The notes under the pieces: generated by a model | Told to the model about the DNA's origin: nothing | Databases searched by the model: none | What the model saw: the letters and a program-made list of their open reading frames with translations, nothing else | Part shown: piece after piece, positions 37,848-59,832 of the stretch | How the letters are laid out: each line of letters starts with the position of its first letter | How positions within the stretch are numbered: the stretch's first letter is position 1 | Made by a program: the position numbers and the translations under genes | Assembly: GCF_000166395.1 (NCBI RefSeq) | Contig: NC_014655.1 | Span: 1,798,001-1,862,000 of the forward strand | DNA length: 64,000 nt | From: Leadbetterella byssophila DSM 17132 | Lineage (GTDB): Bacteria > Bacteroidota > Bacteroidia > Cytophagales > Spirosomataceae | Direction of reading: 5' to 3'

Positions 37848-38597
37848 TCAAAAACAGAAGCTTATTTCCTTAATATCAAATTTTTTCTTGGAATGATCCG
37901 ATGTTATCAATAATTCTCCCCTTTCTCCAATACCAGTTATAACCCCTTGGAAGGTAACACCTTCACTTAGAAAGCTGCGCTCTTTCTGGTAGCCTAACAA
38001 AACACTATAGTATTCCTGCTTCAGGTCATATCCTTTCTTAAGGAGCAAGACATGCTTTTCTAAACCCTCACAAAGGGCGCAAATGACTTCATCTCTTGAA
38101 TAATTATAGCCTGCCAAAGCAAGAGATACTGCTCTTTCAGGAAGATGATCCCGTTGATTAACATTAAGACCTATACCAATGATGGAGGATTTTAGCTTAC
38201 CCTCCCTGATACTGCTTTCTATCAGAATACCACCTAATTTCTTATCCTGCCAATAAATGTCATTTGGCCATTTTATACTTAAATCCTGAACGCCTAAACT
38301 GTTCAGTCCGGAATATACCCCTAAGGCAGTCGCAATACTTAAATCAAACTGTTTATTTACAGAAAGATAGGATGTATTCAACACCACTGACATCATCACA
38401 TTTTGCCCGGGTTCTGCCAGCCAAACCGTGCCCCTTTGCCCCCTACCCGCACTTTGAAAATCCGTATAGACTAAAAGTCCGTCATAATTGTCATCTCGTT
38501 CTGTATATTGGGAGGCAATATCATTAGTGGAATGACAATTTGGCAGAAAAACCTGATTTTGTCCAACAAATAAAGTTTTGGGATGAAGTTTGAGCAA
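37848..38597 (-). CDS. birA: Biotin-[acetyl-CoA-carboxylase] ligase
   Basis: BirA makes biotinyl-AMP and attaches biotin to the carboxyl-carrier protein in the cytoplasm. The 249-aa enzyme has the biotin-binding SAGRGQRGTVW, the ligase KWPNDIYW and KLGGILIESS motifs, and an SH3-like C-terminal domain. It has no N-terminal helix-turn-helix, so it is a class I ligase and should not repress transcription. No ATG is available: the frame has a TAA at 38604-38606, leaving TTG 38597 as the plausible start. It is divergent from rsfS. Confidence 0.93.
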   Translation of the reverse strand: MLKLHPKTLFVGQNQVFLPNCHSTNDIASQYTERDDNYDGLLVYTDFQSAGRGQRGTVWLAEPGQNVMMSVVLNTSYLSVNKQFDLSIATALGVYSGLNSLGVQDLSIKWPNDIYWQDKKLGGILIESSIREGKLKSSIIGIGLNVNQRDHLPERAVSLALAGYNYSRDEVICALCEGLEKHVLLLKKGYDLKQEYYSVLLGYQKERSFLSEGVTFQGVITGIGERGELLITSDHSKKKFDIKEISFCF

Positions 38598-48168: not shown

Positions 48169-48567
48169 ATGAAATTTGAACATTTGGGCATAGCAGTAGC
48201 TAACTTGGAAGAGGCTAACGCCATATTTTCCAAGATCTTTGCCAGCTCTCCCTATAAAACGGAGACCGTAGAATCAGAAGGTGTTACTACCTCCTTTTTT
48301 CATACAGGTAATGGCAAAATGGAGCTCCTGGAAGCCACTAGAGAGGATAGCCCCATTGCAAAATTCATAGCGAAAAAAGGCCCGGGAATTCATCATGTGG
48401 CCTTTGAAGTGGAAGACATCAGAGCAGAAATGCAACGTTTGAAACAAGAAGGATTCCATCTCCTCAATGAAGAGCCAAAGAGAGGAGCAGATAATAAATG
48501 GGTATGCTTTTTACATCCAAAAGACACTCAATCCGTACTAATAGAACTTTGTCAGGAAATCCTTTGA
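48169..48567 (+). CDS. mce: Methylmalonyl-CoA epimerase
   Basis: The enzyme interconverts (2R)- and (2S)-methylmalonyl-CoA, linking the B12-dependent mutase to propionate metabolism. The 132-aa VOC-fold protein has FEHLGIAVANLEEA (metal His5), the middle ELLEATREDSPIAKFI, GPGIHHVAFEVEDI with the second His, and the closing VLIELCQ with the metal Glu. It is a standalone gene; methylmalonyl-CoA mutase and carboxylase genes are not in the window. The 3' end holds a promoter-like box for the following polysaccharide genes. Confidence 0.92.
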   Translation: MKFEHLGIAVANLEEANAIFSKIFASSPYKTETVESEGVTTSFFHTGNGKMELLEATREDSPIAKFIAKKGPGIHHVAFEVEDIRAEMQRLKQEGFHLLNEEPKRGADNKWVCFLHPKDTQSVLIELCQEIL

Positions 48568-50520: not shown

Positions 50521-51515
50521 AAGGAATATCAGTCATAATAGCATGTTATAATAGCTCCAGGGTACTGGCAGATACACTAAGACACCTTCAAGTACAGAAA
50601 GGCTGCGAAGGGATAGCTTGGGAGGTTATAGTAGTAGACAATGCCTCCACAGATCACACTGCCGAAATCGCAGAAAAGGTTTGGGAAGAAAACCCTATTG
50701 TTCCCTTAAGAGTAATATTAGAGACAAAACAGGGCGAAGCTCATGCACGTAGAGCAGGCATACTGGCTGCAAAATACGATATACTAAGTGTAGTGGATGA
50801 TGATAACCGAGTAGCAGACAATTGGATTGCCACCTTACACAAATACTACCAAAATCCGGAGATAGGACTGATAGGCTGCGCCGGAGAAGGTGCATTTGAA
50901 ACCCCACCACCGGCATGGTTCAAGAAAAACGAGCACGCATTTGCTATAGGTAAACTCTATGAGGGACAGTTCACAGACATCACTGAACATGCACTGGTAC
51001 CTGGTGCCGGACTGAGCGTCAGGAAGAAAGTTTACGATCACCTGTATACTCAAGGCTGGAAACCCTTCTTAGAGGGAAGAGTGGGGAATAAACAGACTGC
51101 CGGCGCCGACAGCGAAATGTGCCTGATAACTAGAAGATTAGGATATAAGATCTACTATTCCAATGAGCTGCACTTCAGACACTTTACCACAGCAGATCGT
51201 ATCACCTGGGAGCGTCTGAGAAACATGACCTATGGATTCGGGGCAGCAGATGTTTTTATTTTAGTGTACCAAATTCACTGGCTAGAAAGCACGGGAAGGA
51301 CCTCAATGATGACCCGACTAAGAAAACTTTGGTGGTTCAATTTATTGGGCAAAAAGATCAATTATTTCACAAAGAAGAATAAGATCAAAGACCCGCAGGA
51401 AAGGGAGCTGTTTGAGATTCGTAATAAAGCCTTTTGCGAGACTATCGTGAAGGAAAGGATTAAATTCCAGGAAGCCTTTGCCTACCTAGAAGATATAAAA
51501 CCTATAAAACCCTGA
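50517..51515 (+). CDS. Family 2 glycosyltransferase (second of pair)
   Basis: The 332-aa GT2 enzyme starts at GTG 50517, overlapping the preceding TGA as GTGA. It has GISVIIACYNSSRVLADTLR, IVVDNASTDHTAEIA, the acidic motif VVDDDNRVADNW, and WKPFLEGRVGNKQTAGADSE followed by a C-terminal helical tail. AGADSEMCLITRRLGYKIYY is the typical ED/QxxRW-like region of this family. It is cotranscribed with the flanking genes; the stop and the next ATG share one base (TGATG). Target sugars are unknown. Confidence 0.9.
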   Translation: MKGISVIIACYNSSRVLADTLRHLQVQKGCEGIAWEVIVVDNASTDHTAEIAEKVWEENPIVPLRVILETKQGEAHARRAGILAAKYDILSVVDDDNRVADNWIATLHKYYQNPEIGLIGCAGEGAFETPPPAWFKKNEHAFAIGKLYEGQFTDITEHALVPGAGLSVRKKVYDHLYTQGWKPFLEGRVGNKQTAGADSEMCLITRRLGYKIYYSNELHFRHFTTADRITWERLRNMTYGFGAADVFILVYQIHWLESTGRTSMMTRLRKLWWFNLLGKKINYFTKKNKIKDPQERELFEIRNKAFCETIVKERIKFQEAFAYLEDIKPIKP

Positions 51516-52558
51516 TGGTTTATATTCATCAAGCCATAAGAGTACCTAACGGTAAAGTGGGAGGAATTTACAAAAGGACTCCCCCGGAAAACCTAATGGC
51601 CCACTTGATGAAGAAACTCCCAGAGTTACCGGAAGAGATTATTCTAAGTACTTCAGTGGGTACAGGGGGAAACATGGCCAGGTTTGCTTCTTTAACAGCT
51701 GGCTATCCTTTAGAAATCCCTGCAAGCACCATAGATGCTCAGTGTATAGGAGGTTTGAAAAGCATAGAAATGGGATTTGCCTTGATCGCATCCGGGCTCA
51801 GGAAATCTGTCTTAGTGGGAGGCATGGAAAGCGTCAGCTTAGCTCCCATCAGAATCTATACCCAAAATGACCCTAGATACACCGGAAAACCCTATTCTCA
51901 AGCTGTATTCAGTCCTAATGGAGAGCTTAGTCTTCTTCCGGCAGCAGAAAGATGTGCAAAGGACATAGATAAAGAAAGCATGTGGAGATGGTTCAAAAGA
52001 TCACATCTCCTGGCATCTCAATCTAAAGAGGTTCTTGCACCCTACCTGTGTGCTTTAGAGCCTAAACATACGGATTTGTCTTTCCGACCAGATATTCAGC
52101 TCGAGGCCTACAGTACTGCAGAAAAAATAGACCGCACCACCACGGCTCCTCCTGCTGACGGAGCTGCAGTTTTATACTTATCTTCGGATCCCCAAGGAGC
52201 TTTGGCACGTATACATACTGTAAAAACCATAGGTACAGACCCGGCATTTGCCCCCTTGGGAATAAGGAATGTCATTTCATCCTTGAACACAGATTTGGAT
52301 AGAATAGACTTGTTTGAAATCTCTGAATCCTTTGCGTTTATTCCTGAAATATTCTGCAATGACACAGGCATTGCTGAATCCAAGGTCAACGTTCTCGGAG
52401 GAACTTTAGCCTACGGGCATCCTTTTGGTGCGAGCGGTACCATCCAAGTGGTGCATTTACTGGCCGCTTTAAAAAGCAGAAACAAAAGTTGGGGTTTAAC
52501 GGTTATACCGGGAGCAGGTGGATTAGCCTCCGCCTTAATTTTGGAAAATGTTATTTGA
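51515..52558 (+). CDS. Thiolase-family acyltransferase with altered active site
   Basis: Thiolases join or split acyl-CoAs using two cysteines, a His and an Asn-held water. The 347-aa protein keeps the acyl-binding Cys77 (DAQCIGGLKSIEMG) and the GHPFGASG motif (His302). The NEAF motif is SESF (Ser270 replaces Asn), and the second Cys of the CxGGGxG motif aligns with Pro332 in VIPGAGGLAS. This suggests it is not a standard degradative thiolase; a condensing or acyl-transfer role is possible. It is short for the family. It sits between glycosyltransferases and an acyl-CoA-ligase gene that it overlaps by 11 bp. Confidence 0.8.
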   Translation: MVYIHQAIRVPNGKVGGIYKRTPPENLMAHLMKKLPELPEEIILSTSVGTGGNMARFASLTAGYPLEIPASTIDAQCIGGLKSIEMGFALIASGLRKSVLVGGMESVSLAPIRIYTQNDPRYTGKPYSQAVFSPNGELSLLPAAERCAKDIDKESMWRWFKRSHLLASQSKEVLAPYLCALEPKHTDLSFRPDIQLEAYSTAEKIDRTTTAPPADGAAVLYLSSDPQGALARIHTVKTIGTDPAFAPLGIRNVISSLNTDLDRIDLFEISESFAFIPEIFCNDTGIAESKVNVLGGTLAYGHPFGASGTIQVVHLLAALKSRNKSWGLTVIPGAGGLASALILENVI

Positions 52559-53828
52559 CAGGTGGAAAAATATTGATCCAGATAAACTGGCCCTGAAATT
52601 TCCGGGTAAAAGTTATTCCTATGGAGAACTATATGCAGAAATACGGAAGCGATCCTCAGGATTAAAGCGAGGTGCTTATTTACTTTGCCATCATTCTGAA
52701 TCAGAAAACCTGATAAATTTTCTGGCTGTTCTGCATAAGGGTGGGAAAGCCGTCTTCGCAGGAAAACACAGTAATGAAGACCTAAAAAGAGAGTATGCGC
52801 ATGTCCACCAATTAATTCCTTTAGATTTTGTACCAAAGGGGGAGTATGACTTAGAAGAACCCTATTCCCCACAAAAATCTGATCTATTCCTGGGAGTTCT
52901 CAGCTCAGGAAGTACTGGCCAACCAAAGCTCATTTGGAAGGATTATCAGGCTTGGTTTTCTGCATTTCCTGCCCAGTCAGAAGTATTCCAAATCCAAGCA
53001 GACGACACACTCTTGTGTTTGGATGCTATGGCGTATTCGGCCAACTTAAACGCGGTCATTCACGGTTTATGGCTAGGCGCAAGCATCTATCTAACTCCTC
53101 TTCAAAATGCGAGTAAATGGGCTGAGCTGTTAAAGGAAGTAAGTGCCATCTTCATGGTGCCTTCGCATTACCGCCTATTACCCAATAGAGGAGCATATAC
53201 GCATATCCGCTCTGTAGTGAGTGCCGGAGAGAAATTAGAAGTTAAACTGGCAGAACAGCTGCTTCGAAATTTCCCCAATGCCTGTATCACGGAATATTAC
53301 GGAGCCGCTGAGTTAGGACATATCTCCTATATCCAGAATGAGGAAATCATTAATCTGCCCACCTCAGTGGGTAAACCCTTCCCTGGAGTAAAAATCTCTA
53401 TCAAAGAGGAAAAAATTTGGGTAGATAGTCCCTACGTTTCTCCTGATTACCGACATCAACCTACGGTATCCGACTTAGGATTTATAGATCCAAACGGCTA
53501 CCTCTGCTTATTGGGTAGAGAAGGTCGAATGTTTAACCGTAGAGGTTTAAACATCTTTGCAGAGGAGATCGAGCAAGTCACTTTACTCCACCCAAAGATC
53601 AGAGAAGCCGCCTTAGTTTCGCCCCTACCTGACCTTCTGGTTCTATATGTGGTGCCTACTGAACCAATAAGCCACCATGAATTAAGAAACTATCTCCTCA
53701 GTAAACTGAGTTCTGATAAGCTACCTAACCGTATACAATTCTTCCATGAGCTTCCCAGATCCAGCTCAGGAAAAGTAGATTTCAAAGTATTAGCTAAAAA
53801 ACCTATAGAAGAAGATAGTAGCAAATAA
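52548..53828 (+). CDS. AMP-binding acyl-CoA ligase-like enzyme
   Basis: The 426-aa adenylate-forming enzyme activates an acyl or aryl acid to an AMP ester, probably for transfer to CoA. The P-loop is SSGSTGQPK, the A5 motif is YYGAAELGH, the Asp-bearing A7/A8 region is VSDLGFIDPNGYLCLLGREG, and the C-terminal catalytic Lys is in SSSGKVDFK. It is shorter than typical acyl-CoA synthetases, mainly at the N-terminus, but all core motifs are present. The gene pairing recalls the staphylococcal vraA-vraB (ligase plus thiolase) arrangement; that comparison is from memory and not tested. The substrate is unknown. Confidence 0.85.
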   Translation: MLFDRWKNIDPDKLALKFPGKSYSYGELYAEIRKRSSGLKRGAYLLCHHSESENLINFLAVLHKGGKAVFAGKHSNEDLKREYAHVHQLIPLDFVPKGEYDLEEPYSPQKSDLFLGVLSSGSTGQPKLIWKDYQAWFSAFPAQSEVFQIQADDTLLCLDAMAYSANLNAVIHGLWLGASIYLTPLQNASKWAELLKEVSAIFMVPSHYRLLPNRGAYTHIRSVVSAGEKLEVKLAEQLLRNFPNACITEYYGAAELGHISYIQNEEIINLPTSVGKPFPGVKISIKEEKIWVDSPYVSPDYRHQPTVSDLGFIDPNGYLCLLGREGRMFNRRGLNIFAEEIEQVTLLHPKIREAALVSPLPDLLVLYVVPTEPISHHELRNYLLSKLSSDKLPNRIQFFHELPRSSSGKVDFKVLAKKPIEEDSSK

Positions 53829-53866: not shown

Positions 53867-55765
53867 ATGAAATTCTATATTTTTTTAACTATATACTTTT
53901 TTACATATCTAAATATTTTTGCACAAAAGGATACCGTGCAACTAGAAGTGGTAACCGTTTCAGCTACCTTATTACGAAATGAAATCAAAAACACAGCTAG
54001 AAACATCAGCATAATCGACCGAAAAACGCTGGAAAGTGCACCTGTAAAGACCCTAGACGGCATTCTACAGTATGCATTAAACGTTGACGTTCGCTCCCGC
54101 TCTGCTTTTGGTGTTCAAGCTGACATCAGCATTCGTGGTGGACATTATGACCAAACCCTCATCCTATTAGATGGAGTAAAAGTGAATGATCCTCAAACAG
54201 GACACCATGCTTTAAATCTCCCTGTACCTTTTTCCATGATAGAAAAGATTGAGGTTTTACAAGGAGGAGCTTCCCGGGTCTTCGGCCCATCTGCTTTCTC
54301 CGGTGTAATCAATATCATCACCAAAAAGCCGGCTAAGTCAGAAGGAGAGATCCAATTGGGCGCCGGCCAGTTCCACACCTGGCAGTCGGCCTTATACGGC
54401 ACTTGGGTAAAAGACAAATGGAACGTAGGCGCAGGGCTGGATTTGGTAAAGAGTGAAGGTTTCCAAGCTGCCACCGACTATAAAAAACATAGTTTAAATG
54501 TAAATGCAGAAAGAAGTTGGACCAAAGGAACCATACAGCTTTTATACGGACAAATGAGCAATGACTTTGGGGCATCTAATTTCTACCACCCAAAGTTCTT
54601 TAACCAATACGAAGAGGTATCTTCTCATCTGGCTAATCTGGCCTGGAAGCAGAGATATTCGGACAAATGGCAATCTACCTTCCTAGCAAACTACCGCCTG
54701 CATTATGATATGTTTGACTTCGATAATTATAGAAACACAGACAAAATAAATCTTCTCAATGTACATAGATCTGATGTCTGGGACATAGAATGGAAGTTTA
54801 ATTACAAAAATCACACGGCATTTGGTTTAGAATGGAGAAAGGAAGGTATACTTTCAAACAGAATAGGAGATCCCCTTGATCAGCCAAGAAAAGAAGCAAA
54901 AGATTGGTCGGACCTAACTTACACTCATCAAAAGAGCAGAGATAATCTCAGCCTGTTCTTTGAACGTAAATTTGTATGGCAGAATTTCAATCTGAATGTA
55001 GGAACTTTGGGCAGTTATAATTCCAAGTTTGGATTCTCCCTATTCCCCGGCTTAGATCTTGGTTATGCTTTAGATAACACTTCCCGCATTTATTACACGG
55101 TCAATAGGTCGCTTCGATTCCCTACCTTTACGGAATTATATCTCAAAAATAACACCGTTACTGGTGACCCTAACCTACTCCCGGAAAAGGCTTGGACTCA
55201 GGAGCTGGGATTCAAAAAGCAGTCGCATGGTTCCCTTTCTCAAGTTTCTCTATTCTATACGCATACAGAAGATGCCATAGATAAGGTCAAGCGACCAGGC
55301 ATTACGGTACCACTAATGGAAAACATGGATTATCTGAACCGCTGGGGCATAGAACTGGCCCAAAAATGGAATTTCAGTAAAAACCCTATTCGCCTCAAAC
55401 AATTTAGCCTGAATTATGCCTGGATTCACGCCGATAAAAAAGAAGAAGGTTATCAATCCTTCTATACCTTAAACTACCTGAAGCACAAAGCCACCTTAGG
55501 AACCTTGTTTGAACCTCTACCTTCATGGAACCTCAGCCTATGGTATACCTTTAAGGATAGAGCCGGACAATACTCCTGGGATGATGCATCCGCTCCTATA
55601 GATTACGCATCCTTTGGACTTTTGGACTTTAGAACTTCCTATAAAATTCAAAAGTTTGAAATCAGGTTAGACCTGAATAATCTTCTGAACAAGGAATACT
55701 TTGAATATGGCTTTGTCAAACAGCCTCCTCGTACCATAACGGGCACTATAGTATACGGCTTTTAA
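53867..55765 (+). CDS. TonB-dependent outer-membrane receptor (BtuB-like size)
   Basis: The 632-aa receptor imports a scarce ligand with TonB-derived energy. It has a signal peptide (about 1-19, NIFAQ), a TonB-box-like segment (LEVVTVSA), the plug domain (about residues 40-150, ISIRGGHYDQTLILLDGVKV) and a 22-strand barrel ending KQPPRTITGTIVYGF. The carboxypeptidase-like N-terminal domain of SusC-type receptors is absent, and size and plug motifs are closest to BtuB or siderophore receptors. Cobalamin would fit with the nearby B12-linked mce gene, but this is inference. A terminator follows. Confidence 0.9.
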   Translation: MKFYIFLTIYFFTYLNIFAQKDTVQLEVVTVSATLLRNEIKNTARNISIIDRKTLESAPVKTLDGILQYALNVDVRSRSAFGVQADISIRGGHYDQTLILLDGVKVNDPQTGHHALNLPVPFSMIEKIEVLQGGASRVFGPSAFSGVINIITKKPAKSEGEIQLGAGQFHTWQSALYGTWVKDKWNVGAGLDLVKSEGFQAATDYKKHSLNVNAERSWTKGTIQLLYGQMSNDFGASNFYHPKFFNQYEEVSSHLANLAWKQRYSDKWQSTFLANYRLHYDMFDFDNYRNTDKINLLNVHRSDVWDIEWKFNYKNHTAFGLEWRKEGILSNRIGDPLDQPRKEAKDWSDLTYTHQKSRDNLSLFFERKFVWQNFNLNVGTLGSYNSKFGFSLFPGLDLGYALDNTSRIYYTVNRSLRFPTFTELYLKNNTVTGDPNLLPEKAWTQELGFKKQSHGSLSQVSLFYTHTEDAIDKVKRPGITVPLMENMDYLNRWGIELAQKWNFSKNPIRLKQFSLNYAWIHADKKEEGYQSFYTLNYLKHKATLGTLFEPLPSWNLSLWYTFKDRAGQYSWDDASAPIDYASFGLLDFRTSYKIQKFEIRLDLNNLLNKEYFEYGFVKQPPRTITGTIVYGF

Positions 55766-57324: not shown

Positions 57325-59832
57325 ATGAATCATTATTTAAAAATAGCTGCAGGATTCCTGACCCTCCTGACGGCTGCTTCAGAAACCCCTATCCAGATAC
57401 AGGAGGATTTTAAAGTAGAAAAACTCTATTCCCCCTCAGAAGCAGGACTAGGCTCCTGGGTTTCCATGACCTTTGACCCGCAGGGAAGACTAATCACTTC
57501 AGATCAGTTTGGAGGGCTGTATCGTCTCCGCCTAGAAAGCCCCATCCAAGTGGAAAAACTGAGTATTCCGGGGGACACACTAGGTTTCGGGGCCGCCCAA
57601 GGCATGGTCTTCCACAAAGACGTCTTATATCTTTTGGTCAATTATAATGGAAAAGATCAACACAAGAGTGGACTGTACAAATTAGAAGACCTGAACAAAG
57701 ATGACACCTTTGAAACCTTAACTCTCATCAAAGGCCTAAAAGGAGAAGGGGAACATGGCCCTCATAGCCTGGTTTTAGACCCCGCAGAAGAACACCTATA
57801 CCTCATCGCCGGAAATCATACGGACCTACCGAAAATGGACGAGTACCTCCTTTCTCCTACTTGGAAACACGATAACCTATACCCTTTCCTCAAAGATCCT
57901 AGAGGGCATGCTACAGACCGCAAAGAACCCGGAGGGTGGATTGCGAAAGTTGAACTAGCCTCCGGTAAGTGGACTCTGGTAGCCGCAGGATTCAGAAATG
58001 CCTTTGATTTGGCCTTTAACGAAGACGGAGAACTCTTTGCTTACGACTCTGATATGGAATGGGATTTAGGCATGCCTTGGTACAGGTCCACTCGCCTTTG
58101 TCACGTCATTAATGGAAGCGAGTTCGGTTGGAGAACCGGTTCTGGAAAATGGCCAGAATACCACGTGGATCAGGTGGCACCATTACTTCACATGGGACAA
58201 GGATCCCCCACAAACCTCATCTCTTTAAAGAACGCCGCCTTCCCCGAAGATTATAAGAATACCTTACTAGCCTTTGATTGGAGCTTTGGCATCATATATT
58301 CTATACATCTAAAAAGAGAAAGGGAGTCTTATCAGGCTGAAAAGAAAGAATTTTTAAGTGGTATTCCTTTACCCCTGACTGACGGTGTAATTGGGCCTGA
58401 CGGTGCGCTTTATTTCTTAACCGGGGGACGTAAGTTGCAATCTAATCTGTACAAGGTTTCTTATGTGGGTAATAAGCCCAAAATCAAGCCCAGCGAAACG
58501 CTCCATCCTTTTGCTCTTAGAAGAAAGCTTGAAAGCCTCCCTAAAGACTTAGATCAAATATGGCCTTATCTGGATCATGAGGAAGCTCAGATCAAGTATG
58601 CAGCCAGAATGGCTTTAGAGCACATTTCTCCTGAAAAATGGGAGACAAAAGTCCTTTCAGAACCCTCCTTTTCCAAAAGAATTATAGGCTTAATGGCTTT
58701 ATGCCGGGCAAAAGAGAAAGTAAATAAAGCAGGGCTAGAAAGGTCTCTGTTAGAAATACCTGTCAACACACTTACACTTCAGCAAAGACTGGAATACTGG
58801 CGGGTTTGGGAAATCTATATCTCTCGCCACGGTCAGCCCATTCAAATAACGGCATTCCATCAATTCTTACCCTTCCCTAATCAAGATGATTCGGAGAATA
58901 GACAAGTAGCCAAGTTAATGGTAGCCACTCAGCATCCCCAAGCGGTTAGCAGACTCTTACCCTACTTGGAGCAGAATCAGGAAAATGTGCAGTATGCCTC
59001 CGCTGAACATTTGATCCTTAGAAATCCCAATTATGGCATAGACCTAGCCAGGCTACTTGAAAAACTACCTCCTGAAAATCAAATGTTCTATGCTATACTC
59101 TTATCTGAACAAAAAGTAGGATGGACTCCAAAGTTAGAGGAAACTTACTTCAAGTGGTATAAAAAGGCATTCCAATACAGAGGAGGTCTTAGCTATGTAG
59201 GCTTTTTGGACAATGCACGTAAAAATGCATTAAACAGAGTCACTCGCAAAACCTTTCTGCATCAACTTTCAGGAGGAGATGACCTGAATCCAAGCGGGAA
59301 TGATCTGATCACTGCCCCGGAAGGACCAGGGAGAAGTTGGAAAACTGAAGATGCCACCGCCTTATTTAAAGACGGCTGGGGCATAAGAGATTTTTCTAAA
59401 GGCCAAAACCTGTACAAAGCTACTCTTTGCGACAAATGCCATACTCTACAAGGAGAGGGCGGTAATATTGGTCCGGATCTCACCCGCTTAGGAACCAGGT
59501 TTGATATCAAGGGGATAGTAGAAGCTATTATAGAGCCTAACCTTTCCATATCAGATCAATACGCTGCCACACACCTCCAACTGAAAAATGGAGAAACCCG
59601 GGTAGGGAAAATCATAAACGAAGATGCACAGTACATTAGCTTGTCGCAAAACCCCTTCACGCCTACTATTACTATGAAAATACCCAAAAAAGACGTAGTT
59701 TCAAGGCAAATTTCAACGGTATCCATGATGTTACCCGGCTTGATCAATGGTTTAAATGAGGAGGAAGTAAGAGACCTTGTAGCATTTCTCATGGCCGGTG
59801 GAGATCCTAATCATTCCGTTTACCAACCATAA
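57325..59832 (+). CDS. PVC-type heme-binding dehydrogenase-like protein
   Basis: The 835-aa exported protein has an N-terminal signal peptide and a soluble-sugar-dehydrogenase-like beta-propeller (about residues 25-370, with ITSDQFGGLYRLRL, GEGEHGPHSLVL, GWIAKVELASGKW and GFRNAFDLAFNEDGELFAYD). An Arg/Leu-rich helical repeat region follows (about 400-640). The C-terminal cytochrome c domain has the heme motif CDKCH (Cys702, Cys705, His706) and a likely Met ligand in VSMMLPGLINGL. This architecture is known from Planctomycetes-Verrucomicrobia and Bacteroidota sugar-oxidising systems. Neighbouring sugar isomerase and Gfo/Idh genes fit a keto-sugar pathway; the substrate is unknown. Confidence 0.88.
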   Translation: MNHYLKIAAGFLTLLTAASETPIQIQEDFKVEKLYSPSEAGLGSWVSMTFDPQGRLITSDQFGGLYRLRLESPIQVEKLSIPGDTLGFGAAQGMVFHKDVLYLLVNYNGKDQHKSGLYKLEDLNKDDTFETLTLIKGLKGEGEHGPHSLVLDPAEEHLYLIAGNHTDLPKMDEYLLSPTWKHDNLYPFLKDPRGHATDRKEPGGWIAKVELASGKWTLVAAGFRNAFDLAFNEDGELFAYDSDMEWDLGMPWYRSTRLCHVINGSEFGWRTGSGKWPEYHVDQVAPLLHMGQGSPTNLISLKNAAFPEDYKNTLLAFDWSFGIIYSIHLKRERESYQAEKKEFLSGIPLPLTDGVIGPDGALYFLTGGRKLQSNLYKVSYVGNKPKIKPSETLHPFALRRKLESLPKDLDQIWPYLDHEEAQIKYAARMALEHISPEKWETKVLSEPSFSKRIIGLMALCRAKEKVNKAGLERSLLEIPVNTLTLQQRLEYWRVWEIYISRHGQPIQITAFHQFLPFPNQDDSENRQVAKLMVATQHPQAVSRLLPYLEQNQENVQYASAEHLILRNPNYGIDLARLLEKLPPENQMFYAILLSEQKVGWTPKLEETYFKWYKKAFQYRGGLSYVGFLDNARKNALNRVTRKTFLHQLSGGDDLNPSGNDLITAPEGPGRSWKTEDATALFKDGWGIRDFSKGQNLYKATLCDKCHTLQGEGGNIGPDLTRLGTRFDIKGIVEAIIEPNLSISDQYAATHLQLKNGETRVGKIINEDAQYISLSQNPFTPTITMKIPKKDVVSRQISTVSMMLPGLINGLNEEEVRDLVAFLMAGGDPNHSVYQP

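What the first reader, a model, noticed from the sequence alone, without database searches (positions are those of the whole stretch)
51515..53828. Thiolase homologue lacking two catalytic residues, paired with an acyl ligase inside a glycosyltransferase operon
The thiolase-like protein keeps Cys77 and His302 but has Ser270 where the NEAF Asn belongs and Pro332 where the second Cys belongs. It overlaps an intact adenylate-forming ligase by 11 bp and is directly coupled to two GT2 genes and a WbsX gene. Classical thiolytic activity is unlikely. An activated acyl group could be condensed with or transferred to a glycan or lipid, giving an uncharacterised modified polysaccharide or lipid. The vraA/vraB-like pairing elsewhere is a partial precedent.
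Basis: partly seen in the sequence, partly recalled or inferred. Interest (0 to 1): 0.65.

Follow-up and report, generated by a model that had tools for sequence, protein, structure and literature searches.

The report
Biotin-linked thiolase–ligase pair, not glycan
Two neighbouring genes that look like part of a sugar-coat operon most likely belong to a little-understood vitamin (biotin) acquisition module shared by distant bacteria, in which a thiolase that has lost one of its two catalytic cysteines works with an acid-activating enzyme, perhaps to rebuild damaged biotin; the function is inferred and untested.

Summary
In detail: Cys77 and His302 are kept, Ser270 replaces the NEAF Asn, Pro332 aligns with the second catalytic Cys, and the ligase is intact. 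The glycan reading fails: of 16 other Bacteroidota loci with the pair, one has WbsX-GT2-GT2 upstream, whereas all 16 (and the window) have a TonB receptor downstream. Losing the second Cys is a family trait (kept in 0 of 80 relatives, 31 of 31 controls); Asn to Ser is private to the window. Outside Bacteroidota the pair lies near BioY, the biotin importer component, in 53 of 64 loci, sometimes behind a BirA-like site, like the BirA-regulated yhfTS genes of Bacillus and Staphylococcus, whose function is not established in what I read. In 37 genomes of the window's family, BioB is in 0 of 13 with the pair and 15 of 24 without; those 13 all have biotin protein ligase. Best reading: a biotin-acquisition module whose thiolase, KAS III-like in its relatives, extends ligase-activated acyl chains, perhaps side-chain-shortened biotins. 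The biotin link is fairly well supported; substrate and reaction are inferred. The window's copy, lacking the Asn, may be impaired.

The parts
51515..52558 (+). thiolase-fold protein of the family lacking the second Cys (347 aa)
   Evidence: Pfam Thiolase_N and Thiolase_C; AlphaFold2 pLDDT 94.2, best PDB match Z 49.6 to a type-2 thiolase; groups with the other Cys-less members on one side of a branch
51743..51745 (+). Cys77 codon, nucleophile position, kept
   Evidence: Cys in 80 of 80 relatives and 31 of 31 controls
52322..52324 (+). Ser270 codon at the NEAF Asn position; private to the window
   Evidence: Asn in 79 of 80 relatives, Gly in one
52418..52420 (+). His302 codon (GHP motif), kept
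   Evidence: His in 80 of 80 relatives
52508..52510 (+). Pro332 codon at the second-Cys (CxG) position; loss shared by the family
   Evidence: Cys in 0 of 80 relatives and 31 of 31 controls
52548..53828 (+). adenylate-forming acyl ligase (426 aa), partner of the thiolase
   Evidence: Pfam AMP-binding and AMP-binding_C; top NCBIfam equivalog PRK07638, below its cut-off; ANL fold, Z 35.7 to DltA and 35.4 to MenE, tied
53867..55765 (+). TonB-dependent outer-membrane receptor, conserved next gene after the pair in Bacteroidota
   Evidence: Pfam Plug and TonB_dep_Rec_b-barrel; next gene after the ligase in 16 of 16 Bacteroidota loci; 45-63% identical orthologue in the 12 other pair-bearing genomes of the family and in G007 (49%), weaker match (33%) in G054 of another family

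Best explanation
The thiolase, the ligase and the downstream TonB receptor form a biotin-acquisition module, the Bacteroidota branch of a family whose other members sit beside BioY and resemble yhfTS / vraAB. Proposed working: (1) the receptor brings a biotin-related carboxylate across the outer membrane (inferred); (2) the ligase adenylates it and makes a CoA or carrier thioester (enzyme class shown by sequence and fold, substrate inferred); (3) the acyl group moves to Cys77 and, because the proton-abstracting second Cys is gone family-wide while the Cys-His-Asn set remains in relatives, the enzyme condenses it decarboxylatively with a malonyl thioester in the manner of KAS III rather than cleaving 3-ketoacyl-CoA (inferred); (4) reduction, dehydration (FabA-like or tentatively MaoC-like neighbours in many Bacillota loci) and reduction finish a two-carbon extension (inferred). 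The most economical substrate is a side-chain-shortened biotin such as bisnorbiotin, so that the product is biotin in cells that cannot make it. My odds by step: biotin link of the family about 0.75; chain extension rather than cleavage about 0.5; shortened biotin as substrate about 0.3. In the window the Asn is lost too, so this copy may have altered or weakened condensation. The confidence given is for the whole chain.
For: BioY within about 3.5 kb in 53 of 64 non-Bacteroidota loci, usually abutting the thiolase start, ligase adjacent in 59 of 64 (Pfam BioY in 3 of 3 tested). BirA-like palindrome (consensus recalled) at 2 or fewer mismatches before 13 of 58 such operons against 1 of 278 control gene starts in the same loci. 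Published: BirA binds the B. subtilis yhfU operator of yhfUTS (PMC4016012, passages); S. aureus BirA represses the yhfS-yhfT promoter in E. coli reporter strains and binds it (PMC6391492, passages). Window's family, 37 genomes: BioB in 0 of 13 with the pair, 15 of 24 without, Fisher p 2.3e-4; only genomes at least 90% complete 0 of 12 against 13 of 20, p 4.5e-4; by genus 0 of 5 against 15 of 23, p 0.013. The 13 and G007 all carry biotin protein ligase. Receptor right after the ligase in 16 of 16 Bacteroidota loci. Second Cys absent in 80 of 80 relatives and in 18 of 18 ligase-adjacent Bacilli thiolases inspected, present in the 11 of 11 inspected there that are not ligase-adjacent; one change of this state on the tree. 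FabA-like neighbour over the Pfam cut-off in the one tested (L093).
Against: There is no substrate evidence. B. subtilis YhfU, the BioY homologue of yhfUTS, was reported in 2024 to import pantothenate (PMC11487621, passages), so a BioY-type neighbour does not prove biotin. No BirA-like site at 3 or fewer mismatches before 15 of 15 Bacteroidota operons scanned (the window was not among them), so there the link rests on a receptor of unknown substrate and on missing BioB. Nine of 37 family genomes lack both pair and BioB, so not every auxotroph has the pair; G007 has the receptor without the pair. The family counts are not corrected for descent (10 of 37 are one genus). Most Bacillota relatives have another conserved Cys (GNAC, 61 of 64) that might replace the lost base, which would weaken the decarboxylative reading there; Bacteroidota (1 of 16) and the window lack it. 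MaoC-like neighbours: 2 of 5 tested match MaoC below the cut-off, 3 of 5 not at all. YhfS and VraB themselves were not retrieved.
Confidence: 0.33

Rival explanations
1. Lipid adaptation to biotin shortage: when biotin, and so acetyl-CoA carboxylase, is limiting, the ligase activates exogenous fatty acids and the thiolase-like enzyme elongates or transfers them. The biotin link is regulatory only.
For: Ligase nearest to acyl-CoA synthetase models; vraABC is described as fatty-acid metabolism (PMC11730646, passages); BirA control of yhfS-yhfT fits shortage signalling (PMC6391492).
Against: Does not explain why the pair is locked to a TonB receptor in Bacteroidota without a BirA-like site, nor the exclusion of BioB there. 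A malonyl-dependent enzyme is an odd answer to low malonyl-CoA (inference).
Confidence: 0.2
2. The window's thiolase is losing catalysis: with the Asn, the second Cys and neighbouring loop residues gone it keeps only acyl transfer or a structural role for the ligase.
For: Ser270 is the only Ser among 81 sequences; the loop reads TAPPADGA where the 11 family relatives have A-H/D-x-H/N-D; end branch 0.73 against 0.47 for L047; identity to outgroups lower than L047's in 4 of 6 comparisons.
Against: Open frame, confident T2 fold, Cys77 and His302 kept; changes at outgroup-invariant columns are 7 in the window against 6 in L047, so no clear acceleration.
Confidence: 0.18
3. Pantothenate or a CoA-related acid rather than biotin: the BioY-like partner imports pantothenate and the pair acts on it or on another vitamin acid.
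For: YhfU was shown genetically to be the pantothenate S-component PanU in B. subtilis (PMC11487621, passages).
Against: BirA control in B. subtilis and S. aureus and BirA-like sites in part of the Bacillota operons; BioB exclusion in the window's family. A condensing enzyme has no obvious step on pantothenate (inference).
Confidence: 0.08
4. Pimelate supply for biotin synthesis, as BioZ does from glutaryl-CoA.
For: A KAS III-like site plus ligase and dehydratase would suit it; BioZ precedent (PMC11089781, passages).
Against: Of 36 pair-bearing genomes, 0 of 10 Bacteroidota have BioB or BioA over the cut-off; of the 26 others, 20 have BioB and 13 BioA. The product would be of no use in genomes without the later steps.
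Confidence: 0.06
5. One reading: an acyl group is put on a glycan or lipid made by the GT2/WbsX operon.
For: Tight coupling to GT2 genes in the window and in L047.
Against: Order absent from the other 15 of 16 Bacteroidota loci; no homologue of the two GT2 genes at E 1e-8 in any other of the 80 loci, WbsX only in L042-L047.
Confidence: 0.05

Closest known systems
B. subtilis yhfU-yhfT-yhfS and S. aureus yhfT-yhfS, the BirA-controlled ligase and thiolase genes (that the S. aureus genes are vraA and vraB is recalled)
   Different: In Bacteroidota the order is thiolase then ligase, a TonB receptor stands in place of BioY, no BirA-like site was found, and hosts lack BioB. YhfS and VraB themselves were not retrieved by name, so their own residues were not checked.
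Type-2 biosynthetic thiolases (Z. ramigera)
   Same: Fold, Cys77, His302.
   Different: The second Cys (378) is absent family-wide and the Asn (316) in the window. [quoted passage not shown] the paper itself was not read.
KAS III and BioZ
   Same: Relatives retain a Cys-His-Asn set without a second Cys, as KAS III does (recalled).
   Different: Best sequence and structure matches are thiolases; decarboxylation untested; the window lacks the Asn.
Mycobacterial thiolase-like protein TLP1
   Same: Thiolase fold with catalytic motifs replaced, NEAF and CxG included (PMC3406046, passages).
   Different: TLP1 keeps none of the thiolase catalytic residues and carries an extra C-terminal domain; a ligase partner is not mentioned in the passages seen.

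Membership tests
Type-2 thiolase (acetyl-CoA acetyltransferase) | thiolase fold | tested here: met
   predicted model: Z 49.6 to 3ss6_A, rmsd 1.8 over 341 residues
Type-2 thiolase (acetyl-CoA acetyltransferase) | nucleophile Cys and GHP His | tested here: met
   Cys77, His302
Type-2 thiolase (acetyl-CoA acetyltransferase) | NEAF Asn | tested here: not met
   Ser270; Asn kept in 79 of 80 relatives
Type-2 thiolase (acetyl-CoA acetyltransferase) | second Cys of CxG | tested here: not met
   Pro332; Cys in 0 of 80 relatives, 31 of 31 controls
yhfTS / vraAB type pair | thiolase gene next to an AMP-ligase gene | tested here: met
   window; 16 of 16 other Bacteroidota loci and 59 of 64 others
yhfTS / vraAB type pair | same tree group as YhfS / VraB | tested here: inconclusive
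   groups with unnamed ligase-adjacent Bacilli thiolases on one side of a branch (SH-aLRT 98 and 99, quick unrooted trees); named YhfS and VraB were not in the tree
yhfTS / vraAB type pair | BirA operator | tested here: not met
   0 of 15 other Bacteroidota operons at 3 or fewer mismatches to a recalled consensus; the window itself was not scanned
yhfTS / vraAB type pair | BioY-type gene beside the pair (as in B. subtilis) | tested here: not met
   0 of 16 Bacteroidota loci; BioY over the cut-off in 0 of 37 family genomes
KAS III-like decarboxylative condensing enzyme | Cys-His-Asn set | tested here: not met
   79 of 80 relatives meet it, the window has Ser for Asn
KAS III-like decarboxylative condensing enzyme | malonyl-thioester decarboxylation | not testable with these tools
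   needs an enzyme assay
ANL acyl/aryl ligase | P-loop, A5 Glu, A8 Arg, A10 Lys | tested here: met
   Glu255, Arg324, Lys409 invariant and Gly121 nearly so in 27 rows; motif names recalled

The most novel reading that the evidence does not exclude
A vitamin repair route: bacteria rebuild biotin from side-chain-shortened biotins by one two-carbon extension, using an AMP ligase and a thiolase that has turned into a condensing enzyme by losing its second Cys; Bacteroidota auxotrophs coupled it to a TonB receptor. This would give a function to yhfTS / vraAB, BirA-regulon genes for which the passages read here name no established function.
Probability: 0.25. Interest if true: 0.8.

Novelty: new variant of a known kind. 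Interest (0 to 1): 0.55.

Why it matters
The BirA-controlled pair yhfTS has no established function in any passage read here. The present data tie the family across phyla to BioY and BirA-like control, show a family-wide loss of the thiolase base, and reveal a Bacteroidota branch confined, in the genomes examined, to hosts without biotin synthase. That narrows the chemistry and makes a direct feeding test possible. It also suggests that genes annotated as acetyl-CoA acetyltransferase in these operons are not classical thiolases, and it offers a candidate outer-membrane receptor for biotin vitamers.

Tried and rejected
Pimelate synthesis: disfavoured by missing BioB and BioA. Beta-oxidation of biotin: disfavoured by the Cys loss and by BirA repression in relatives; not tested. 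An alternative Cys restoring the classical site: of the columns with Cys in more than 30% of the 80 relatives there are two, Cys77 and the column of window Ala211. The latter is Cys in 61 of 64 non-Bacteroidota relatives, 18 of 18 Cys-less Bacilli rows, 1 of 42 canonical rows and 1 of 16 Bacteroidota. Whether it reaches the active site could not be measured, as no model coordinates are given out. Pseudogene: no support. A wider Bacteroidota distribution: a phylum sample (395 genomes, up to 5 candidates scored in most genomes) gave 63 genomes with hits at E 1e-60, but apart from the window's own thiolase no hit exceeded 236 bits, and the 29 such loci inspected keep the second Cys, so those are ordinary thiolases; rarer members could have been missed.

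PRK06690 does not single out the window: an ordinary thiolase of the same genome scores higher with that model (268 bits; window 73 and 63 in two pieces). The family assignment rests on the tree and on gene neighbourhood. Hot-dog assignment of vraC-like small ORFs: neighbour profiles hit six loci with the ligase-thiolase-ORF order at 20-37 bits, and L161 and L164 with one profile at 22-24 bits; Pfam did not confirm any of 4 tested, so tentative. Ligase fold matches (DltA, MenE, MatB and others, Z 33-36) do not point to a substrate. Literature: searches (yhfTS, vraABC, BioY with thiolase; bisnorbiotin) showed no paper that gives yhfTS a function or describes norbiotin repair by it, in the listings and passages seen; several listings were cut (20 of 228, 3 of 74,907, 15 of 20). 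The library is open-access only. Rodionov 2002 on the biotin regulon is recalled and not held.

Rows dropped or not independent: one search kept the best 80 of 267 confirmed relatives. The 36 genomes are G000 and those of 35 of the 80 loci, chosen by me for spread. The 29 Bacilli loci inspected are the best-scoring ones of a much longer hit list. The BirA-site scan used 73 of 80 loci (operon start found, at least 200 bases of upstream sequence). Several loci without BioY are cut short by contig ends. The second tree used 35 of the 80 loci and left out L168 and L137 (over-long ORFs); L053 is a long branch. L053 (a run of X) was dropped from the ligase alignment before folding. G002 counts as pair-bearing on its ligase at a contig end and its receptor. 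The family name Spirosomataceae for group f1 is recalled from GTDB; the tree listing places named members in NCBI's Leadbetterellaceae, Cytophagaceae and Spirosomataceae.
Full report
1. Observation. The two genes are real and tightly packed: thiolase 51515-52558 and ligase 52548-53828, both on +, overlapping by 11 bp, with the preceding GT2 gene sharing one base with the thiolase start. Pfam confirms Thiolase_N/C, AMP-binding and AMP-binding_C, two GT2 and WbsX upstream, and a TonB receptor downstream at 53867-55765. The residue claims hold on alignment: Cys77, Ser270, His302, Pro332. The genome also has two ordinary thiolases with all four residues.

2. What is shared and what is private. Eleven family relatives and then 80 loci from named genomes (best 80 of 267 confirmed) were aligned. 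The nucleophile Cys and the His are in 80 of 80, the Asn in 79 of 80, the second Cys in 0 of 80; 31 canonical controls have all four. So the loss of the second Cys marks a family, and Asn to Ser is an extra change of this genome. A sample of 200 genomes of the class of Trichococcus (Bacilli) gave many hits; of the 30 best loci, 29 besides Trichococcus itself were inspected: 18 lack the second Cys and all 18 sit next to an AMP ligase; 11 keep it and none of them is adjacent to one (3 of the 11 have a partial ligase hit about 0.8-0.9 kb away). On quick maximum-likelihood trees the Cys-less rows are one side of a single branch (SH-aLRT 99 and 98).

3. Neighbourhood. In the 64 non-Bacteroidota loci (by record title mainly Clostridia and Negativicutes, also Halanaerobium, Trichococcus and one Spirochaetaceae MAG) the ligase is adjacent in 59 and BioY lies within about 3.5 kb in 53, mostly abutting the thiolase; Pfam confirmed BioY in the three tested. 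Proteins matching the hot-dog neighbour profiles lie near in 35 of 64; the FabA-like kind passes the Pfam cut-off in the one tested, while of five MaoC-like ones two match MaoC below the cut-off and three do not. A BirA-like palindrome with at most 2 mismatches precedes 13 of 58 such operons against 1 of 278 control starts (consensus recalled). In the 16 Bacteroidota loci there is no BioY, no BirA-like site at 3 or fewer mismatches in the 15 scanned, and the next gene after the ligase is an orthologue of the window's TonB receptor in 16 of 16. WbsX-GT2-GT2 precedes the pair in L047 alone; in L042-L046 a WbsX homologue lies on the opposite strand.

4. Distribution against biotin synthesis. Among 37 genomes of the window's family (group f1, GTDB Spirosomataceae by recall), 13 have the pair (G002 by ligase and receptor at a contig end). 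BioB over the cut-off: 0 of 13 with the pair, 15 of 24 without (Fisher p 2.3e-4; by genus 0 of 5 against 15 of 23, p 0.013). The receptor is in these 13 and in G007, which lacks pair and BioB; a weaker match (33% identity) is in G054 of another family. The 13 and G007 carry biotin protein ligase over the cut-off, so they use biotin. BioY is over the cut-off in none of the 37. In a second set of 36 pair-bearing genomes, which shares 7 Bacteroidota genomes with the first, BioB is over the cut-off in 0 of 10 Bacteroidota and 20 of 26 others, BioA in 0 of 10 and 13 of 26. The module therefore does not depend on de novo synthesis. These counts are not corrected for common descent, and nine of the 37 genomes lack both pair and BioB.

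5. Known relatives. B. subtilis BirA binds the yhfU operator of yhfUTS (PMC4016012, passages), and S. aureus BirA represses the yhfS-yhfT promoter in reporter strains and binds it (PMC6391492, passages). A 2024 study assigns YhfU to pantothenate uptake (PMC11487621, passages), which counts against reading every BioY-type partner as a biotin importer. vraABC is described as fatty-acid metabolism with the adaptive role of vraA open (PMC11730646, passages), and VraC with VraP as affecting cell wall (PMC10620731, passages). That yhfT-yhfS of S. aureus are vraA-vraB is recalled. None of these passages gives the pair a tested enzymatic function.

6. Mechanism. In Z. ramigera thiolase Cys378 is the base and Asn316 with His348 forms the oxyanion hole (PMC3406046, passages). 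A natural family without the base but with Cys, His and Asn resembles KAS III (recalled), which condenses by decarboxylation. With a ligase beside it and a dehydratase-like gene near it in many genomes, chain extension fits better than cleavage. Since the pair also serves genomes without BioB, the product would have to be biotin itself or something unrelated to synthesis; extension of side-chain-shortened biotins is the simplest chemistry that meets this. All of this is inference. A second conserved Cys (GNAC, 61 of 64 non-Bacteroidota, 18 of 18 Cys-less Bacilli) leaves open that Bacillota enzymes have a relocated base; Bacteroidota, with 1 of 16, do not share it.

7. The window's own copy. 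Fold prediction is confident (pLDDT 94.2; best match a type-2 thiolase, Z 49.6), and the ligase model is a two-domain ANL enzyme (pLDDT 89.7; best Z 35.7). The thiolase has an extra loss (Asn), an unusual loop, a longer end branch than L047 (0.73 against 0.47) and lower identity to outgroups in 4 of 6 comparisons, yet changes at outgroup-invariant columns are about equal (7 and 6). It may act with altered chemistry or be weakening.

8. Verdict. Observation confirmed; glycan interpretation not supported; reassigned to a biotin-linked ligase and thiolase module of unproven reaction. New variant of a known but functionally unassigned pair.

Noticed in passing
window 37878-38546 (-): Biotin protein ligase (TIGR00121 over cut-off) lies in the same window about 13 kb from the pair; in G009 it is about 12 kb from the pair on the same contig.
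   Followed up: partly
window 48169-48567 (+): Methylmalonyl-CoA epimerase (TIGR03081 over cut-off), overlapped by the listed start of the WbsX ORF, whose true start is probably later.
   Followed up: no
L061, L093, L103 and other Bacillota loci, GNAC loop of the thiolase: A conserved Cys at the canonical Ser position of this loop in 61 of 64 non-Bacteroidota and 18 of 18 Bacilli Cys-less thiolases, in 1 of 42 canonical rows.
   Followed up: partly
window 52548-53828 (+), residues 166-168: The ligase family has an ANLN stretch (Asn166 and Leu167 invariant in 26 rows) where other acyl-CoA ligases have the A4 His motif (recalled), hinting at an unusual acid pocket.
   Followed up: no
G007: Same genus as the window: receptor orthologue present without the pair and without BioB.
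   Followed up: no
window 57325-59832 (+): Long ORF with a CDKCH motif read by eye as a c-type cytochrome site; not searched.
   Followed up: no
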